Positions 54,464 to 64,000 of a stretch of 64,000 nucleotides of DNA are shown in pieces (the first letter of the stretch is position 1; every line of letters begins with the position of its first letter). Made by a program: the position numbers and the translations under genes. The notes under the pieces are model-generated. The model was not told the origin of the DNA. It did no database searches and worked only from the letters and a program-made list of their open reading frames with translations. Source of the DNA: Thauera sp. (GTDB lineage: Bacteria > Pseudomonadota > Gammaproteobacteria > Burkholderiales > Rhodocyclaceae); NCBI GenBank assembly GCA_024235615.1, contig JACKMB010000002.1, forward strand, positions 344,321 to 408,320. Direction: 5' to 3'.

Positions 54464-54491
54464 TTTCTGAGCTGCCTATCCGGCAGTGAAT

Positions 54492-54523
54492 TTGGTGTCG
54501 AACGGGTCGTTGCTGCTGAACAA
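54492..54523. other. Leader-distal spacer adjacent to the IS110 insertion
   Basis: A 32-nt spacer, the last one in the array, lying between the intact terminal repeat (54464-54491) and the split repeat (from 54524). A deletion-bearing version of the same spacer occurs at 57191-57215, also directly beside an IS110 copy. Confidence 0.85.
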
Positions 54524-54619
54524 TTTCTGAGCATCCCATCCGCGCGTCCCGCACGCCCGGCGTTCCGGAAGAAACGACTATGGCTTACAAGGAGAACGGC
54601 AGCGCCGCGATGACCGACA

Positions 54620-54790
54620 CGTCATTGGTGCGAGCTCGCGGCGTTAGAGGACGCTGTGGAGCGAGCCCGACTCTGAGCATGGTCCGGGAATCGTCGGCGA
54701 CAGTGGTGAGCACAGCGATGTGCATCCCGTTTGAGAGATCGAGTCGAAATCGACGCTTCCCTTGGCGCTGCCGTTCTTGGACGAGGATGG
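54620..54790 (+). ncRNA. Candidate IS110 bridge RNA region
   Basis: The non-coding left end of the element contains a clear stem-loop: GCTCGC (54634-54639) with GCGAGC (54661-54666), and inside it GCGT (54641-54644) with ACGC (54651-54654). Directly after it, TCTGAGC (54672-54678) is identical to seven bases of the interrupted CRISPR repeat, as expected for a left target guide. TTGAG (54731-54735) matches the element's right junction, as expected for a donor guide. IS110-family bridge RNAs are established knowledge; assignment of loops here is inference. Boundaries are approximate. Confidence 0.45.
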
Positions 54791-54795
54791 AGCAG

Positions 54796-56121
54796 ATGAT
54801 GGCGATGCGCAAGCGGACAGACACGGTGTTCCCGAACGCGGCGGGGATCGATGTGGGTGCTTCGAGCCACTGGGTGGCGGTGCCGCCCGACGCGGCAGAG
54901 GAGTCGGTGCGCGAGTTCGGCGTCATGACGGACGATCTGCGCGCCTTGGCCGACTGGTTGATGGCGTGCAAGGTGGAGATCGTCGCCTTGGAGTCGACCG
55001 GCGTGTACTGGATCCCGCTGTTCGAGATCCTGGAGCAGCGCGGACTGCAGGTCTGGCTGGTCGATGCGCGACAGATGAAGTACGTGCCCGGCCGCAAGAG
55101 TGATGTGCAGGATTGTCAGTGGCTGCAGCGTTTGATGAGCTACGGGCTGCTGCGCGCAGCATGGCGACCTGCCGGAGAGGTCTGTGAGCTACGGGCGATT
55201 GCCCGGCTGCGCGAGACCTTGCTCGCCGAGCAGGCCAGTTGGGTGCAGCGCATGCAAAAAGCCTTGGTGCAGATGAACATTCAACTCACCGAGGTGCTCA
55301 CCGACGTGATGGGGATGAGCGGTCAGGCGATCATCCGTGACATCGTCGCCGGCGAGCGCAACCCTGAAGTGCTGGCGCGTCACCGTCACCGGCGGGTCAA
55401 GGCCAGCACCGAGGAGGTCATCCGTGCGCTGACCGGGAACTGGCGCCAGGAGCATCTGTTCGTGCTGGGTCAGGCACTGTCGATGTACGACGACATCGCC
55501 CGTCACCTGCGCGAATGCGACGCCCAGATGCAGGTGCTGCTCGGGCAGCGGGCGCAGTGCGCGATCAACGTTGGCGCGGTGCCTCGAGCCGGCAGCAAGG
55601 CGCGCGCTGCCTTCGATGTCCGGCAGATGCTCGCCAATTGGGCAGGGGTCGATCTGACGCGGATCAACGGGCTCGAGGTGAGCTCGGTGATGAAGATCCT
55701 GACCGAGATCGGACCCGACCTCTCCCGCTTTGCCAACGTGAAGCACTTCTGCTCGTGGCTGGGGCTGTGCCCAGGGACCAAGGTCAGCGGTGGCAAGGTG
55801 CTCTCGGCCGGTACCAAGCGTTCGGCCAACCGCGTGCGCCAGGCCCTGAAGATGGCCGCGATGACGCTATCGCACAGCAACTCCGCCCTCGGAGCGTTCT
55901 ATCGGCGCCTTTGCAGCCGGATGGACAAACCCAAGGCGAACACCGCAACGGCGCATAAGCTCGCGCGCATGGTGTATTTCATGCTCACCCGCGGCGAGGC
56001 CTTCGTCGACCAGGGGCAGCAGCGATACGAAGAACTGCAACGCGAGCGCAGCATCGCTGCACTCAAACGCCGAGCCACCGCGCTCGGGTTCCAGATCAAC
56101 CCCATCGGGGCAGCCGCATGA
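54796..56121 (+). CDS. IS110-family transposase (serine/DEDD recombinase)
   Basis: A 441-residue recombinase with the two-part IS110 layout. The N-terminal RuvC-like DEDD domain has Asp in AAGIDVGASSHWVAV, Glu in VALESTGVYW and the Asp pair in GRKSDVQDCQWLQ. The C-terminal transposase_20 domain has the helix-hairpin-like LTEIGPDLSRFANVKHFCSWLGLCPGTKVSGGKVLSAGTKRSANRVRQALKMAA, with the serine candidate in the SGG region. The start is uncertain: ATGs at 54787, 54796, 54799 and 54805 are in frame; 54796 follows GGAG closely. Reading upstream to 54580 is open but covers the guide-RNA region, not protein. It is transcribed opposite to the array. Confidence 0.93.
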   Translation: MMAMRKRTDTVFPNAAGIDVGASSHWVAVPPDAAEESVREFGVMTDDLRALADWLMACKVEIVALESTGVYWIPLFEILEQRGLQVWLVDARQMKYVPGRKSDVQDCQWLQRLMSYGLLRAAWRPAGEVCELRAIARLRETLLAEQASWVQRMQKALVQMNIQLTEVLTDVMGMSGQAIIRDIVAGERNPEVLARHRHRRVKASTEEVIRALTGNWRQEHLFVLGQALSMYDDIARHLRECDAQMQVLLGQRAQCAINVGAVPRAGSKARAAFDVRQMLANWAGVDLTRINGLEVSSVMKILTEIGPDLSRFANVKHFCSWLGLCPGTKVSGGKVLSAGTKRSANRVRQALKMAAMTLSHSNSALGAFYRRLCSRMDKPKANTATAHKLARMVYFMLTRGEAFVDQGQQRYEELQRERSIAALKRRATALGFQINPIGAAA

Positions 56122-57223
56122 AAACCGCCCCGGCTAGTTTTGTTTCTTGAGCTGCCTATCCGGCAGTGAATCGTCCGCAGGCTCAACACGGTGCTGTTTC
56201 TGGCTGCCTATCCGGCAGTGAAATCTTGTCCTTCGCGGAATTTCGCCCGGACTTTCTGAGCTGCCTATCCGGCAGTGAATTATGTGCGCGTCACCGAGGT
56301 CGCGGTCTCAGTTTCTGAGCTGCCTATCCGGCGGTGAATTGCCGAGTAACATTCACGCACGCGTTGCGTCTTTCTGAGCTGCCTATCCGGCGTGAATGGT
56401 GAATCCTGCTATAAGCGCGTTTTCTGAGCTGCCTATCCGGCAGTGAATAAGCGATCGCCGTGCTCCCGTACCGATTTCTGAGCTGCCTATCCGGCAGTGA
56501 ATTGGGATCATGCGGGTCGACAGGTTTTCTGGGCTGCCTATCCGGCAGTGAATCTTCGTGCCGACAGCACCGCCGAGGCTTTTCTGAGCTGCCTATCCGG
56601 CAGTGAATGTAGAACGCCTCGCGCTGCTGGTCCATTTCTGAGCTGCCTATCCGGCGGTGAATACGGTATCCCAGAGCACGTGCAGGGGACGCTTTCTGAC
56701 GCCTATCCGGCGGTGAATGTATGCGACGGCGTGAACGCATTTCTGGCGCATCCGGCAGTGAATATGAGACTGGTGGTTCCGCTGGCTCGACTTTCTGGAG
56801 CTGCTATCCGGCGGTGAATGGCGTGCGCCGCGATGGACCGTGCTTTCTGAGCTGCCTATCCGGCAGTGAATCGACGAGCTGCGATCCGCGACCGAATTTC
56901 TGGGCGCCTGTCCGGCGGTGAATCCCCGACCTTGCGCAGATTCTTTCTGAGCTGCCTATCCGGCGGTGAATCGACCGGAATGCGCGTCGCTCGTAGGATT
57001 TTCTGAGCTGCCTATCCGGCGGTGAATGTGCCGGTGCTCTATCGGCGCTGCTTTCTGAGCTGCCTATCCGGCAGTGAATGTCATGGTCATTCTGCGCGCG
57101 GATCCATTTTTTCTGGCTGCCTATCCGGCAGTGAATGGAGACATGCTGGGCTGCTCGGCGCATTTCTGAGCTGCCTATCCGGCAGTGAATTGGTCGAACG
57201 TCGTCTGCTGAACAATTTCGAGC

Positions 57224-58434
57224 ATCCATCCCGCGTCCCGAGCCCGGCGTTCGAGAACGATATACAAGCGCACGCCGCGTGACCGGCACGTCATTGGTGC
57301 GAGCTCGCGGCGTAAGGACGCTTGGGCAGGCGATGAGCATGGCGGATCGTCGGCGAAGTGGTGAAGCTGCATCCCGTTGAAATCAGCAAATCACCTTCAG
57401 CGCTGCCTTCGGCGAGATGCGCAGATGCGACGCAGCACACGTTCGAACGCGGCAGATCGTGGGCTTCGAGCCACTGGGTGGCGGTCGCCCGGCAGCGAGG
57501 CAGTGGCGAAGTTGGCGCCACCGCGGCGATCTGCGCGCCGGCGACTGATGCGGCGGTGGAATCTCGCCTTGGTCCGGCGTTACTGGATCGCTGCATTCGA
57601 GATCCTGGAGCAGCTCGTGATCTGCAGGCTGGCTGGTATGCGCTCGACAGATGAAGTACGTGCCCGCATGATGTGCAGGATTGCAGTGCTGAGCGTTTTG
57701 AGCTACGGCGCTCGGCAGCTGGCGCTCTGGAGTCTCGCTCCGGCCGCGGCGTGACATCAAACTGCGCCACTCAGGTGTCACCGACGTGATGAGCGTCGGC
57801 GATACGCATCGGCCGGGCCCGCTGGCGTAGTCCGGCGGGTCGCCGCCCGTGCGCTGCGGGAACTGGCGCCAGGAGCATCTGTTCGTGCTGGGTCAGGCGT
57901 CATGTACGGACGTCGCCCGTCACGCGCGATGCGCGCCCGATGCAGGTGCTGCTCGGGCAGCGGCGCAGTGCGCGATCAACGTTGGCGCGTGCCTCGCCGG
58001 CGGCGCGCGCCTTCGATTCGGATGCGCATTGGGCGGGGTGATTGCGCGCACGGCTGTGAACTGAAGATCCTGACGAGATCGGCGACTCCGCTTGCCAGCG
58101 GAAGCACTTCTGCTCGTGTGGCTGCTGGACCAGGTCAGCGGTCAAGTGCTCGGCAGATACCAAGCGTTCAACCGCGTCGCCAGGCTGAGCCGCGATGACG
58201 CTCGCTGCTCGCCCTGGGCGTTCTATCAGCGCCTTGCGCCGGATGACAAACCAAGCGAACACCAGCGCATAGCTCGCGCGCTGTTATCAGCTCACCCGCG
58301 GCGAGCCTATCGCCAGGGGCAGCAGCGATCGGAACTGCAACGCAGCGCAGCATCGCTGCACTCAACGCCGAGACCGCGCGGGTTCCAGATCAACCCCATC
58401 AGGCAGCCGCATGAAAACGCCGCTAGTTTGTTCT
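57224..58434 (+). pseudogene. Second IS110 copy, disrupted by many small deletions
   Basis: A colinear version of the element at 54533-56147, about 1211 bp instead of 1615, with recognisable segments throughout (for example the GNWRQEHLFVLGQA coding region at about 57858-57899 and the 3' end to 58434). Differences are almost all deletions of 1-5 nt spread along the whole length, with few substitutions, so no reading frame survives. It sits in the same position of a repeat and beside the same spacer (57191-57215) as the intact copy. Either a decayed duplicate or unpolished sequence. Confidence 0.85.
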
Positions 58435-60211
58435 TAGCTGCCATCCGGCAGTGAATGCGAACAACGGCGTCGCTCTGCCACCCTGCATTTCTGAGCTGCC
58501 TATCCGGCGGTGAATGACAACGTTTGCCGACGTGGAGCGTTTTCTGAGCTGCCTTCGGCGAGTGATCCGGCCGCGCGGGCTGCGACGCGACTGGCGCCTA
58601 TCCGGCGGTGAATGTCGATGCCGAGATCGGCGTCGAGAATTCTGGCTGCCTATCCGGCAGGGGATCAGCGCAGTAGAGCGCTTTTCTGAGCGCCTATCCG
58701 GCAGTGAATGCGGCGACCCGCAGCGGTCTTCGCCGACTTTCTGAGCTGCCATCCGGCAGTGAATCCGAGAGCCCTTCACCGGCCGGGCCATTTCGACTGC
58801 CAGCGGTGATCCCGTCAGCAGTTCGGGGCTCGACTCTGAGCGCCATCCGGCGGTTCGCGCACGCCGGGCTGCAGCGAGGCTCATTCGAGCCCACCGGCAG
58901 TGAATGCTCGCAGCGTGCTCCGAACGCGCTTCTGAGCTGCTATCGGCGTGATCTGGCAGCACGCACCGCCGGCATTCGGCTGCATCCGGCAAATCGCCTT
59001 GCCGGCGAGCAGGCCTCGGATTTCGAGCTGCCTTCCGGCGGTGAATAGCAGCATCCATGCGCTGGCCTCGGCTGCTATCCGGCGGAGACTCGGCGCCTGG
59101 AGCTGCCCAGTTCTGCCACCGAGCTGGGACTGGTGAGCTGCCTATCCGGCGTGAATGTAGTCACGCCGGGCTGTGATCCGTAGCTCGAGCTGCCTCCGGC
59201 GGGCCTCGATTCGCTGCGCCGAGCGCCTCCGGCAGTGAAGTCACGATCGGACGGCCACCGCTCGCTGGGCTGCCACGGCAAACCGCCGAAGCCCTTATTT
59301 CTGAACGCCATCGGCGTTGCAAGAAAATCGACGGCACCGGTCGACTGCATCGGCAGTGTCGAGCCGACGCGAACGCGCGGCGCGCTGCTCTGAGCGCCAT
59401 CCGGCGGTGAAGATCGCCGGCTTCAGATCGAGCCTTTTCTGAGCTGCTATCCAGCAGGATCGGCTCCCCGATCCGGCGTTTCTGAGCAATCCGCTGGCGA
59501 GCGCGGCCGATTTCTGAGCTGCCTATCCGGCGGTGAATGTCGAGATGCCGATCCACCGTCCTCTTTCTGAGCTGCCTATCCGGCAGTGAATGCGAAGCAG
59601 TGGAAGACGTGGATGCTTTCTGAGCTGCCTATCGGCAGTGAATGACTCAGTGCCGCTGACGAGTCGACTTTCTGAGCTGCCTATCCGGCGGTGAATGCAT
59701 CGACCCCATGCGGAATCGTCGGTGAAGACAAGCGGCCATCTCGCGGAGCATTTCTGAGCTGCCTATCCGGCGGTGAATGCACGCGCCTCTCCGCCGCGCA
59801 ATTTCTGGCTGCCTATCCGGCAGTGAATTCCGAGGCCCTGGCCGAAGCTGCATCCGGGGCGTGGATTTCTGAGCTGCCTATCCGGCAGTGAATCCCTTGC
59901 CAATCCTCGGCTATTTGCATTTCTGAGCTGCCTATCCGGCAGTGAATCTGCGCGAGAAGGACGACTCCCGCGTCGTCCATTTCTGAGCTGCCTATCCGGC
60001 AGTGAATCAATGCGCTCGCGCCGCCCATTTCGAGCTGCTATCGCAAATCAGCCTCGGACCGCGCCTTTCTGAGCTGCCTATCCGGCAGTGAATGCGCGAT
60101 CGAGATTATGGAGGCATGACCATGTTTCTGAGCTGCCTATCCGGCAGTGAATGACCGCGGGCTTGCGCCCGTGGCACGGCCGCTTTCTGAGCTGCCTATC
60201 CGGCAGTGAAT

Positions 60212-60341
60212 TAGAGGAGAAAGCTCGGATGTTATTGATTGTTAAAGAAAAAGATCAAGGTGTGCCGAAAGCTCCCTTCGTTGTAGAGCATCCGTAACAC
60301 CTTGATTTCATTGCTGCTAGAAGCGCCTCGCAAAAAAGGGT
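60212..60341 (-). promoter_or_regulatory. CRISPR leader with a match to the IHF consensus
   Basis: An AT-rich 130-nt stretch between cas6f and the first repeat, unlike the GC-rich surroundings. On the minus strand AATCAAGGTGTTA (60295-60307) matches the IHF consensus WATCAANNNNTTR exactly, and a second partial copy (GATCAAGGTGTG, 60253-60264, plus strand) makes a perfect 10-bp inverted repeat with it. The T-rich run next to the first repeat fits other I-F leaders. Promoter elements were not pinned down. Confidence 0.75.
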
Positions 60342-60905
60342 TCAGAACCAAGGCACGGACGCGCTCTGGCTCAGGCCGTATGACCCGAACTCGCCGGAGG
60401 TCGGGCTGGCCTGGAGGGGAAGGTGCTCGACGAACAGTTTGAACTGCTGTCCGGTCGTGCGGCTCCGGATCTCGACGTAGGGGAGGGGCAGCATCTCCGC
60501 AGCGCTGTCGGGGATCGCGGTGCGCGCCTCTTCCGCTTCGATGGCCTTGCGCGCCATCAGGCGGCGACGCAGGCGCTCGGGACTGCTCTTGGCTTGAACG
60601 CGACGGACAATGCGGTATGAAGTCTCGACCGGGACCGCGGTTGTGGCGCCGATCTCGGTGTGATCGCGCATGCCATGCGTCCACCCGTTGCTCATCAGCT
60701 GCTCGAGCGAAGCCTTGCTTCCGTGCAGTCGCAGCCGCGCGCCCAGCGTGCGCTTGCCTGGCGCAACATCGGGAAAGCTGACTCCGATGTCGCGCCCGCC
60801 CCAGTCGACCAGGCCACGGTGCAGCTTCGAGAACAAGGCATTCATCAGGATGGCCGGTGGAAATTCGGGATCTGGTCGCAGGGTGATGTCGATGTAGTGG
60901 TCCAT
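60342..60905 (-). CDS. cas6f: CRISPR endoribonuclease Cas6f (Csy4)
   Basis: A 187-residue nuclease, the same length as the Pseudomonas aeruginosa Csy4, that cuts pre-crRNA at the base of the repeat hairpin and stays bound to the 3' end. Catalytic residues fall at the same numbers: His29 (SKLHRG), Ser148 (EIRSRTTG) and Tyr176 (GSYGLS); position 150 is Thr instead of Ser. The Arg-rich helix RVQAKSSPERLRRRLMARK (about 102-120) reads the hairpin. The gene starts 2 nt after csy3 and ends 130 nt before the array. Confidence 0.97.
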   Translation of the reverse strand: MDHYIDITLRPDPEFPPAILMNALFSKLHRGLVDWGGRDIGVSFPDVAPGKRTLGARLRLHGSKASLEQLMSNGWTHGMRDHTEIGATTAVPVETSYRIVRRVQAKSSPERLRRRLMARKAIEAEEARTAIPDSAAEMLPLPYVEIRSRTTGQQFKLFVEHLPLQASPTSGEFGSYGLSQSASVPWF

Positions 60906-60907
60906 GT

Positions 60908-61927
60908 TCAGCCTGCCTCGCCAAAGACGCCACCACGGACGAGCGTGGCGATCACGAAGTGTTGCTGCTCGGCTGGCGGCGTCTGGTCCTTGATGATCCA
61001 GTTGTCGAGCAGGCTGTAGAAGTCGAGCTTTTGCTTGGGCTGGCGGTATGCTTTTCCTTGGGTGGTGACCGAGCCATACGGCTCCACTGCGATCGGCCCC
61101 ATGTCGTCGGCGCCTTCGTACCAGGTGTCGATTGTGCGCAGGGCATTGCCGATTTTTTGCGAGTGGATGCCGGCGATGCCCGCGACCTGGTAAAGCGTCT
61201 TGCTCTTCTCGCCGCGACCGCGGTCTAGGATGAGTTCCTGCGATGGGAATACCTCCTGACCCGAGCCGATGCGGACGAAGGCAGTGACTTGCAGCAGAAC
61301 ATGCTGCTGTCCGGCGAGCCCGTTGGCGATCAGGTGGGCGAGGCCGTCGAGTGCGGGAGCGAACTCGGCAGGCGCATCGAAGCTGCGTAGCGGCAGTGCC
61401 AGCGCGTCGAAGGTCCAGGTCTGCTGCGGCATGCCCCCCACCAGATGCGCGACGCGGACCTCCACCTGCTCGGAACCGATGCGGTTGCGCCACAGGAAGC
61501 GACCGTTGGCGAGGTTGAAAGCGTAGCGGCGGGCAAGTTCGCCAAAGCCTTGGGCGTTTGCGTAGCCCCGGACGGTCTCCAGCAGCTTGTTCAGGTAGTC
61601 GGCGTCGTTGCAGGCGGACGGTTTGCCGGTGCCGCCCAGCACACGCAGCGTGAACACGACCTTCAAGGTGTCGGTGGTGCTGGGCAAAGCGGCGACGTCG
61701 ACTTTCTGCAGGTTAGGGTTCTCGATCGCAGCGTCGAGCTTGGCGGGGTCTTGATCCTTGGCTTTCAGGCGGTTGGATATGGTGCCGCGCACAGACTTCT
61801 CGCTGATGGCAACCGCTCGCCAGCCGTCGGTGGTGTCCCGTTGATCCCAGTTACCCGCGTGGAAAAGGGCGTCGGAAGGGTCGAGTTTGCGTTCGAAGGC
61901 GAGTACGGAGGCGGTCTTGAGCGTCAT
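60908..61927 (-). CDS. csy3: Type I-F Cascade backbone protein Csy3 (Cas7f)
   Basis: A 339-residue RAMP protein; six copies form the backbone along the crRNA spacer in the I-F surveillance complex. The opening [27 protein letters not shown] is the family signature, and [20 protein letters not shown] lies near the end. AAGGAA is about 11 nt before the ATG. It lies 26 nt after csy2 and 2 nt before cas6f. Confidence 0.96.
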
Positions 61928-61953
61928 GATCTGAATTCCTTGTCGTGGGGGGA

Positions 61954-62940
61954 TCAGGCAGATTGCAGGGATGCGAAGTCGTTGCGGCAGCGGTACAGGC
62001 CCGCGACCGGGTCGGTGCTGGCGTACCAGAGGAGTTGGCCGACGTTCTCCAGCCGATGCGGGCTGATCCACTGGCCGATGGAGTAGAGGCTTTCGACAAA
62101 ACGGAAGGCGGTGTCGTGGTCGCGGGCGTTTTGCACTTCTCCCGCGGGTAGCAACTCGGAAAGCGCGCCGAAGCCGACCGGGATCGGAACGATCCAGCCC
62201 GGGCGTGGTTCGGGCGCCCATTCGAGTTTTTCCGGGGCGCTGGGCGTGGCGGCCTTTGCGGGATCGTGCCGGACCGGTCGCCAGTTGAAGCGCGAAAGAC
62301 CGAGCAGGGCATCCAGGGCCGACGCATCCGGCGCGGTTTCGCGCAGTTGTTCGACGCGCGCTTGCAATAGATCGTCGCGACAGACCAGAGCAAAACCCGG
62401 CAGCCAGCGACGACGCAGATGCCGGAAGCGGCGGCGGACGTCCTCGTGATCGTCACCGAGCCGTACGAGCGCCGGGCGGCTGCGCCAATCGCCGCCGGGT
62501 AGCACGCTTCCACCGGCGATGCGCATGCCGGCCAGCTCGTGCGCAACGGTTTTGGCGATCTCGCCATGTGCGGCTTCGTCGAGCTCGACGAAGCCGCCGC
62601 TGACGCCGAAGATCAGCGTGATCTCCATGTGCATGCGCCCTTCCTCGACGATGGCTGCACTGCCGCCGTCCTTGTCGACCGGGTTGCGGGTGAGGCGGAA
62701 GGCTTTCACGTAACCGCCCTCGGTGACTTGCTCGTCGAAGTCGTGGCAGATCACGCCGACGCTGTCGAAAGCGAGGGGCAGATCGTGTGCTTCCAGCTTG
62801 CGGGCGAGTGCCCACATCAGGCCGAGGAATGCGGTCATCGACGGGAAGCCGTGAGTCAGGGGGCTGGAGATGGCGTTGGCGTTTTGCACGCGCAGCCGCG
62901 GCAGGATCAGCAGGCCGTCGCTGGAGGGTAGGGCGCTCAT
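61954..62940 (-). CDS. csy2: Type I-F Cascade protein Csy2 (Cas5f)
   Basis: A 328-residue subunit that with Csy1 caps the crRNA 5' end. The signature [36 protein letters not shown] opens the protein, followed by [27 protein letters not shown] and, near the C-terminus, [21 protein letters not shown] with [22 protein letters not shown]. The ATG overlaps the csy1 stop (ATGA). Csy1 and Csy2 are separate proteins here, as in the I-F1 subtype, not fused as in transposon-linked I-F3 systems. Confidence 0.95.
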
Positions 62941-64000
62941 TGCGCGGACTCCCTGGTCGGAACGTAGGTGGGCGCATCGCCCTGAGCGCGCAGCCGGTGC
63001 AGCGTGCCCCCCCATGTGGAGTGGAGCAGCAGTTCGTCGCGCCATTCGCGAGCTTCGATGTCGCCGAGCGGCAAGGTCTGCCCGAGTTCGTGGTTCAGCC
63101 AATTCGCGAAGCGGTGGCCGATCTCGGCGGGCCAGTCCATGTGCTGCCAGGCTGCCCGGAAATCGGTGTCGGTTGCGTCGCCTGTCTCTGCACGCCTGGG
63201 GTCCAGCCAGAGCCGTTCGGCTTCGGCCAGGCTGCATTCGGCGTCGCGGCTCCAGCCGACGGGCAGGGTGGCCTGCAGCGGGTTTGCGAAGTCGATCAAC
63301 TCGTCGATCAGCCGATCCAACAGCGCGTCGCGGTGGTTGCGGGTTTCCTTGTTAGGAGGCGGCTCGCTCTCGAGAAAATCGCGCAGGGTCCGTACGGCCT
63401 GTCGCACCTCCGGAACCCGGCCGAAGCGCGGCAACACGGAGTCGGTGTGCAGCGGCGTCTTGATTGCGAGGGTCTTCCACTTGGGCGGGCGGGAGGAGAG
63501 CAGGTAGTTGTTACCCCCGCGCTCGCTGTTCAACTGGCTGATGTTCTGCGGTTTGGTGCCGCCGAACTTCTGCACGGCGAGATCGGGGTATTCGCGGTAG
63601 CCGGTGTCGTGGTCGCGCTGCTCGCGCCTTGCCTGGCGGGCGAGCTTCCCCGCCTCGCCGAAGCGGTCTTCGTTGATCGTCTGGAAGACGGCATGGGCGA
63701 GTGCGCTCGAATACAGCGGCGCGAGGAGGTGGTACTGGCTGTCGTCTGCGGGGTCTTCGCCCGCCAGCCAGTAGAGCTGCTTGGCCAAGGTGTGCGAGCT
63801 TGCTATCGCGCTGCGCGGGGCCGTGATGGCGATGAAGGCGTCCAGCCATTCGCTCGCTTGGTCGGCGTGGTCGCTCATCGCGGCGAGCAAGTCAGGGTCG
63901 CATTCCTGCATCCAGGCGAGCAGGGGGCGTTCATCAACTTGCAGCTTGAGCAGCTTGAAGACGTCGAGCGCGGCTGCATTGCCGACGACGTCGCTGCTGA
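62937..64000 (-). CDS. csy1: Type I-F Cascade large subunit Csy1 (Cas8f), C-terminal part
   Basis: The frame is open to the window edge; 353 residues are visible, out of about 430 in the family, so roughly the first 80 are missing. Recognisable are VVGNAAALDVFKLLKLQ at the visible start, QYHLLAPLYSSALAHAVFQTINEDRFGEAGKLARQARR and FGGTKPQNISQLNSERGGNNYLLSSRPP. Csy1 recognises the PAM and recruits Cas2-3. cas1 and cas2-3 normally precede csy1 and should lie beyond the window. Confidence 0.94.
   Translation of the reverse strand, partial: SSDVVGNAAALDVFKLLKLQVDERPLLAWMQECDPDLLAAMSDHADQASEWLDAFIAITAPRSAIASSHTLAKQLYWLAGEDPADDSQYHLLAPLYSSALAHAVFQTINEDRFGEAGKLARQARREQRDHDTGYREYPDLAVQKFGGTKPQNISQLNSERGGNNYLLSSRPPKWKTLAIKTPLHTDSVLPRFGRVPEVRQAVRTLRDFLESEPPPNKETRNHRDALLDRLIDELIDFANPLQATLPVGWSRDAECSLAEAERLWLDPRRAETGDATDTDFRAAWQHMDWPAEIGHRFANWLNHELGQTLPLGDIEAREWRDELLLHSTWGGTLHRLRAQGDAPTYVPTRESAQ

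What the first reader, a model, noticed from the sequence alone, without database searches (positions are those of the whole stretch)
54524..56171. IS110 element inserted inside a CRISPR repeat
The intact element splits a type I-F repeat: TTTCTGAGC on the left and TGAGCTGCC onward on the right rebuild the repeat with TGAGC shared by both ends. IS110-family elements choose targets through a bridge RNA. A repeat occurring dozens of times in one locus would be a safe, abundant landing site and could act as a dedicated reservoir for the element. Two copies in one array, if real, strengthen this.
Basis: partly seen in the sequence, partly recalled or inferred. Interest (0 to 1): 0.75.

Follow-up and report, generated by a model that had tools for sequence, protein, structure and literature searches.

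The report
Jumping gene landed in CRISPR repeat
A mobile element that probably picks landing sites with a short guide RNA has inserted into a CRISPR immune-memory repeat; a near-identical element did so in another bacterium, most likely because its short target word is packed into such arrays rather than because it is dedicated to them.

Summary
An intact IS110 element splits the second repeat from the trailer end of a type I-F array; the genome's only other match is a degraded copy in the same array. That second copy is full of small deletions and shares the first copy's left spacer, so it is no evidence of a second insertion. Covariation over relatives' insertions exposes a bridge-RNA left target guide and a target rule CT-N4-AG, right side unread. 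This element's N4, TCTG, lies in TTTCTGAG at the end of the I-F repeat; 31 of the genome's 36 TTTCTGAG words are in the array. A near-identical element in a Zoogloea metagenome assembly splits an I-F repeat at the same position, but three Thauera aminoaromatica S2 copies and a second Zoogloea copy lie outside CRISPR: 2 of 6 in CRISPR. A different IS110 sits in another type of CRISPR repeat in a further Thauera-genus genome. Best reading: guide-directed insertion, arrays favoured by site density, not a dedicated reservoir. IS110 in CRISPR arrays was already in print in 2016.

The parts
54464..60211 (-). type I-F CRISPR array (leader side at the right, next to csy4), split by the element
   Evidence: CRISPR-DR4 matches on the minus strand; repeats mapped; AT-rich leader-like stretch at 60212+ read by eye
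54524..54531 (+). left half of the split repeat: left target TTTCTG plus core AG
   Evidence: sequence; register set by the Zoogloea junctions
54530..56151 (+). IS110 element with both copies of the core
   Evidence: two mismatches to each of three copies in T. aminoaromatica S2, which are 1622 core to core against 1620 here
54532..54798 (+). non-coding left end that should encode the bridge RNA
   Evidence: covariation scan; fold of 54590-54800 z = -3.46 against shuffles; transcript not shown
54670..54677 (+). left target guide ACTCTG plus core AG
   Evidence: best of all left-end positions in the covariation scan, z = 13.2, next 5.4; by element, by position
54729..54737 (+). left donor guide GTTTGAGAG
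   Evidence: follows the right end (left donor), z = 8.8, next 4.8; both parts are inherited together, so this is weaker than the target guide
54799..56121 (+). IS110 transposase, 440 aa, open
   Evidence: PF01548 and PF02371, NF033542, match to the IS621 transposase 8wt6, E 1.8e-7
56142..56151 (+). right end GTTTCTTG-AG; expected GTTTCTTGAG-AG, 2 nt short here
   Evidence: compared with relatives
56152..56171 (+). right half of the split repeat
   Evidence: sequence
57216..58431 (+). second, deletion-ridden copy of the element; probably poor assembly sequence or an array duplication
   Evidence: 202 deletion events, 10 insertion events, 18 substitutions against copy 1; same left spacer
60345..63908 (-). 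csy4, csy3, csy2, csy1 (I-F effector genes)
   Evidence: Pfam

Best explanation
An IS110 element inserted by bridge-RNA-guided recombination into one repeat of a type I-F array. Its recombinase joins the element circle to a site of the form (C/T)T-N4-AG; the N4 word and core are read by the left target guide in the element's left end (here TCTG-AG), while the right side is hardly read. The I-F repeat of these hosts happens to end in TTTCTGAG, so each array offers tens of near-identical landing sites, in this genome most of the sites for that word. The array is thus a hot spot through site density, not the element's dedicated home. Shown: junctions, guide-target covariation, site counts, a second I-F array hit in another genus. 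Inferred: that the RNA is made and used, transposition activity, neutrality to the host, density as the cause.
For: Guide found without assumption by a covariation scan over 54 left ends (z = 13.2, next 5.4). Guide equals target at positions -4, -3, -2, -1 in 44, 47, 50 and 50 of 52 insertions; mean pairs of six positions (wobble allowed) 5.10 against 3.39 for shuffled pairs, maximum 3.90 of 2000. Right target shows no covariation (46 elements, best z 3.6) and no clear base preference. The six insertions of this lineage all read N-T-Y-C-T-G-AG. TTTCTGAG: 31 of 36 genome sites in the array here; 92 of 142 in the Zoogloea genome. The Zoogloea array (60 + 1 split + 31 repeats) is cut at the same position with csy4, csy3, csy2, csy1, cas3 and cas1 beside it. 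Of 47 genomes with this subfamily that I searched for the canonical I-F repeat pattern, 4 have it: the two with this lineage carry it in the array; in the other two (G812, G818) the fetched elements have guides CTTGAG and GCACAT and no I-F repeat within the fetched DNA.
Against: The guide here reads ACTCTG, so it mismatches the CRISPR target at -6 and -5; T at -5 is found mostly whatever the guide says (44 of 52), which I put down to the protein without a test. If all TYCTGAG words were equally good, the array would hold only 32 of 230 sites here and 92 of 630 in Zoogloea, and the outcome would have probability 0.038, so density alone is strained unless TTTCTGAG is a better target; yet of the four insertions outside CRISPR only one uses TTTCTGAG. 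The Zoogloea element's guide is not seen: its contigs end 124 nt into the left end. That genome is a metagenome assembly with the two array halves on different contigs. The window's right junction lacks 2 nt. The 52 insertions are of related elements (26 distinct guides), and the shuffles do not model relatedness.
Confidence: 0.75

Rival explanations
1. Dedicated niche: this element lineage has been selected to target I-F repeats, as other IS110/IS1111 elements target REP or attC sequences, and lives there as in a harmless reservoir.
For: Both genomes found with the lineage and a matching I-F array carry the element in the array; in the window genome no copy was found elsewhere; equal-weight probability of the array hits 0.038.
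Against: Four of six insertions are outside CRISPR. The guide matches the repeat only over TCTG-AG, and no right target guide for CTGCC was found. In samples of 395 family, 399 order and 369 class genomes (overlapping) only the window and G164 show the junction.
Confidence: 0.1
2. The insertion, or the whole two-copy structure, is an assembly artefact.
For: The array from about 56172 to 60060 is full of deletions; spacers are mostly shorter than the 32 nt expected from the 60-61 spacing in Zoogloea; copy 2 is noisy and repeats copy 1's left spacer; the right junction of copy 1 lacks 2 nt.
Against: Copy 1, the repeat before it and the first spacer look clean; copy 1 has two mismatches to S2 copies; the junction position is the one used in the unrelated Zoogloea assembly.
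Confidence: 0.05
3. Chance landing of a loosely specific IS: the CRISPR repeat is no better than any other site and its number is not the reason.
For: The right side is unread and hundreds of TYCTGAG sites exist (230 here, 630 in Zoogloea); four of six insertions are elsewhere.
Against: Two of two genomes with array plus lineage have the array hit at the same position; a second subfamily also sits in a CRISPR repeat.
Confidence: 0.1

Closest known systems
IS621 and its bridge RNA (PMC11208160, passages seen)
   Same: IS110 recombinase with a guide RNA; the left target guide reads the bottom strand and includes the core; inserts into a repeated genomic sequence (REP elements)
   Different: core AG instead of CT; only about four guided positions found, no right target guide found; CT ahead of the guided word mostly irrespective of guide; most insertions of this lineage are not in repeats
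IS110 copies in Thermoanaerobacter CRISPR arrays, and 59 transposon-split CRISPRs (PMC4852346, passages seen)
   Same: IS110 elements inside CRISPR arrays, several per array
   Different: reported before bridge RNAs were known, other bacteria; no guide-to-repeat link in the passages I saw
ISKpn4 and ISPst6 (attC), ISPa11 (REP), all IS1111, and ISEc21 (IS110 type), PMC11187229, passages seen
   Same: guide-RNA-directed insertion, some into repeated sequence families; non-coding region upstream as in the IS110 type
   Different: those on attC and REP are described as targeting these sequences; here most insertions of the lineage are elsewhere
IS1000 of Thermus (IS110 family), 32 bp of which equal CRISPR repeats (PMC6352166, passages seen)
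   Same: end of an IS110-family element identical to a CRISPR repeat; I suspect the annotated end includes a flanking repeat
   Different: the authors read it as recruitment of IS sequence by CRISPR; not tested here

Membership tests
IS110 family | DEDD N-terminal domain plus Transposase_20 domain | tested here: met
   PF01548 E 6.3e-21, PF02371 E 6.3e-15; NF033542 276.5 bits, cut-off 140; catalytic residues not checked
IS110 family | non-coding region upstream of the gene (IS110 type, not IS1111) | tested here: met
   267 nt upstream, 28 nt downstream; criterion as stated in PMC11187229
IS110 family | guide RNA with target and donor guides | tested here: met
   left target and left donor guides found by covariation; the RNA itself is not shown
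IS110 family | right target guide that pairs with the right target | tested here: inconclusive
   no covariation, best z 3.6; a short or constant guide could be missed
IS110 family | dinucleotide core shared by both junctions | tested here: met
   AG in the Zoogloea copy and in most relatives with both ends seen (not L021, L054); window right junction 2 nt short
IS110 family | circular intermediate | not testable with these tools
   needs PCR or reads
IS dedicated to CRISPR repeats | most insertions of the lineage in CRISPR repeats | tested here: not met
   2 of 6
type I-F CRISPR-Cas | I-F repeat and csy genes | tested here: met
   cas1 and cas3 of this locus would lie beyond the window edge and were not looked for

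The most novel reading that the evidence does not exclude
CRISPR arrays are a general niche for IS110 elements: with guides of only about four to six bases, lineages arise again and again whose guide matches a repeat, and the array then acts as a dense, host-tolerated landing strip, at the price of splitting the immune memory. Three cases in the sampled family (two IS110 subfamilies, two repeat types) fit this.
Probability: 0.25. Interest if true: 0.65.

Novelty: new member of a known kind. Interest (0 to 1): 0.45.

Why it matters
It ties two RNA-guided systems together in a testable way: the guide of a bridge-RNA element predicts which CRISPR repeat variants can be hit (here TTTCTGAG, not TTTCTAAG or TTTCTTAG). 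It suggests a mechanism for IS110 insertions in CRISPR arrays such as those reported in 2016, and gives a compact subfamily rule (CT-N4-AG, right side unread) that may be of use to people who reprogram IS110 recombinases.

Tried and rejected
Rejected: a TGAGC or CT core (the Zoogloea junctions give AG). Rejected: GAGAG as a conserved right target in relatives (it is left donor plus core). Rejected: copy 2 as an independent insertion. The other six junction-pattern hits, in G174, G372 and G486, G616, G627, G712, are unbroken I-F repeats inside arrays, after spacers that end in GTTTC, GTTT or the like. Viral contigs: no junction, one distant relative, 45% aa. Plasmids: five records with relatives at 60-80% DNA identity. 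Papers: eight searches of the held open-access library; in their listings and in the passages I opened I saw no paper linking a bridge-RNA guide to a CRISPR repeat; this says nothing about papers not held. Passages of PMC7344871, PMC10883916 and PMC3718332 did not bear on the question.

Counts and dropped rows. One search kept the best 80 (78 loci) of 117 matches. For the target table, hits under 1000 bases or starting past position 80 of the element were left out, L017 and L027 had no recognisable left end, L034 too short a flank, and L081, L082, L083 and L085 repeat L005, L006, L019 and L016. 54 left ends gave 52 distinct insertions and 26 distinct guides; the two G164 copies of this lineage are not among them, since their guide is not seen. 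Right targets were available for 46. The pattern there is the canonical repeat only. The array scan covered 109 loci with limited flanks and flagged 6: L001 and L002 (the window's array), L003 and L093 (other arrays), L033 and L069 (tandem repeats that do not look like CRISPR).

Full report
What is there. The window lies in a genome (G000, contig C2) of the genus that includes T. aminoaromatica S2 (G103 by contig match), so Thauera. A type I-F array runs from 54464 to 60211 with csy4, csy3, csy2 and csy1 to its right; the repeats match on the minus strand and an AT-rich leader-like stretch follows at 60212, so I place the leader on the right. The IS110 element sits in the second repeat from the trailer end, with an open 440-aa transposase that matches the IS621 transposase weakly. 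The only other match in the genome lies in the degraded stretch 57216-58431 of the same array.

The second copy. Against copy 1 it shows 202 deletion events (425 bases), 10 insertion events and 18 substitutions. Similar damage shows in repeats and spacers from about 56172 to 60060, while copy 1 and the neighbouring genes that I checked are open. Deletions so dominant over substitutions, across unrelated sequence, are what unpolished long reads look like rather than decay; that is inference. Its left spacer is copy 1's left spacer, its right spacer is not copy 1's. A duplicated array segment or a chimeric assembly could give this; reads would tell.

Junctions and core. Three copies in S2 (two mismatches each to the window copy) lie at ATTTCTG-AG-GATC, ACTTCTG-AG-AAGT and GCTCCTG-AG-AACG, none in CRISPR. 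S2 has 15 TTTCTGAG sites and no match to the canonical I-F repeat pattern; an array of another type (I-E by its repeat, from recall) starts 3.5 kb from one copy, lacks TCTGAG in its repeat and does not hold it (L003). In G164, a Zoogloea metagenome assembly by contig match, the I-F array is cut: contig C141 ends in the array and runs into the left end at TTTCTG-AG-CATCCC; contig C123 starts with the right end GTTTCTTGAG-AG-CTGCC and goes on with the array. That makes 60 + 1 + 31 repeats at 60-61 spacing with I-F cas genes at the right. As the intact repeat is known, this fixes the core as AG. A second G164 copy reads TGTTCTG-AG (left, C101) and AG-ACATGG (right, C60), outside CRISPR. That each left and right contig end belong to one insertion is inferred.

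The guide. From relatives at about 72-79% DNA identity, plus the S2 copies, I took left ends, left targets, right targets and right ends, aligned the left ends and asked at which position the sequence follows each element's own target. One place stands out (z = 13.2; next 5.4): the left target guide. Another follows the right end (z = 8.8; next 4.8): the left donor guide. The second is weaker evidence, as right end and guide descend together; a trivial z = 15.7 for the left end against itself is ignored. Over 52 insertions the guide equals the target at -4, -3, -2 and -1 in 44, 47, 50 and 50 cases, at -5 in 34 and at -6 in 23; the target is C at -6 in 41 and T at -5 in 44, mostly whatever the guide says; the right target has no clear preference. 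So the subfamily reads CT-N4-AG, and its right end has the same form, GTTT-CT-N4-AG. The window element's guide is ACTCTG-AG (54670-54677). The IS621 paper describes the same strand logic (PMC11208160, passages).

Why the array. In this genome 31 of 36 TTTCTGAG words and 32 of 230 TYCTGAG words are in the array; in G164 92 of 142 and 92 of 630. With TTTCTGAG as the only target the array hits seen have probability 0.754; with all TYCTGAG words equal, 0.038. The truth probably lies between: the four insertions outside CRISPR use TTTCTGAG, CTTCTGAG, CTCCTGAG and GTTCTGAG. In 47 genomes searched that bear the subfamily, four had the canonical I-F repeat; the two with this lineage have the element in the array, and in the two with other guides (CTTGAG, GCACAT) the fetched elements have no I-F repeat in their fetched surroundings. 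The junction pattern hit 4 of 395 family genomes (two true: the window and G164), 5 of 399 order genomes (one true: the window) and 1 of 369 class genomes (the window); the six others are unbroken repeats.

A second case. A scan of 109 loci for arrays flagged 6, among them L093 (G300, same genus): an IS110 of another subfamily (40% aa identity over residues 8-238) inside a repeat GTTCGAACCGATGCCCTGATATGAAAGGGATTAAGAC. Two relatives at 86% aa let the same logic be seen: targets CATATC-AG, CATTTC-AG and CATGTC-AG against guides TATTTC-AG, TATGTC-AG and TATGTC-AG. Only the first of the three is in an array. Three insertions are too few for a statistical test.

Prior art. IS110 copies in Thermoanaerobacter CRISPR arrays, and 59 transposon-split CRISPRs, were reported in 2016 (PMC4852346, passages). 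So the event is of a known kind; the guide-to-repeat link and the site counts are what is added here.

Noticed in passing
L093:958-2457: A different IS110 subfamily inserted in a CRISPR repeat of another type in another genome of the same genus; its putative guide matches the repeat at ATxTCAG.
   Followed up: partly
window 56172-60060: The array is full of small deletions, so spacers here are unreliable and should not be used for target searches.
   Followed up: partly
window 57191-57215 and 58457-58487: Copy 2 shares copy 1's left spacer but not its right spacer; I have no simple duplication or assembly history that explains both.
   Followed up: partly
L003:7382-8817: Array of another CRISPR type (I-E by its repeat, from recall) 3.5 kb from an S2 copy of the element; its repeat lacks TCTGAG.
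   Followed up: no
literature, PMC6352166 (passages): IS1000 of Thermus (IS110 family): 32 bp of its annotated end equal CRISPR repeats; perhaps the IS was annotated with a flanking repeat it had inserted into.
   Followed up: no
L014, L024, L030, L031, L033: Head-to-tail pairs or remnants: one element's right end serves as the next one's left target.
   Followed up: no
L021, L054 right ends: Right junctions that depart from the GTTTCT-N4-AG rule; L021 lacks the same 2 nt as the window copy.
   Followed up: no
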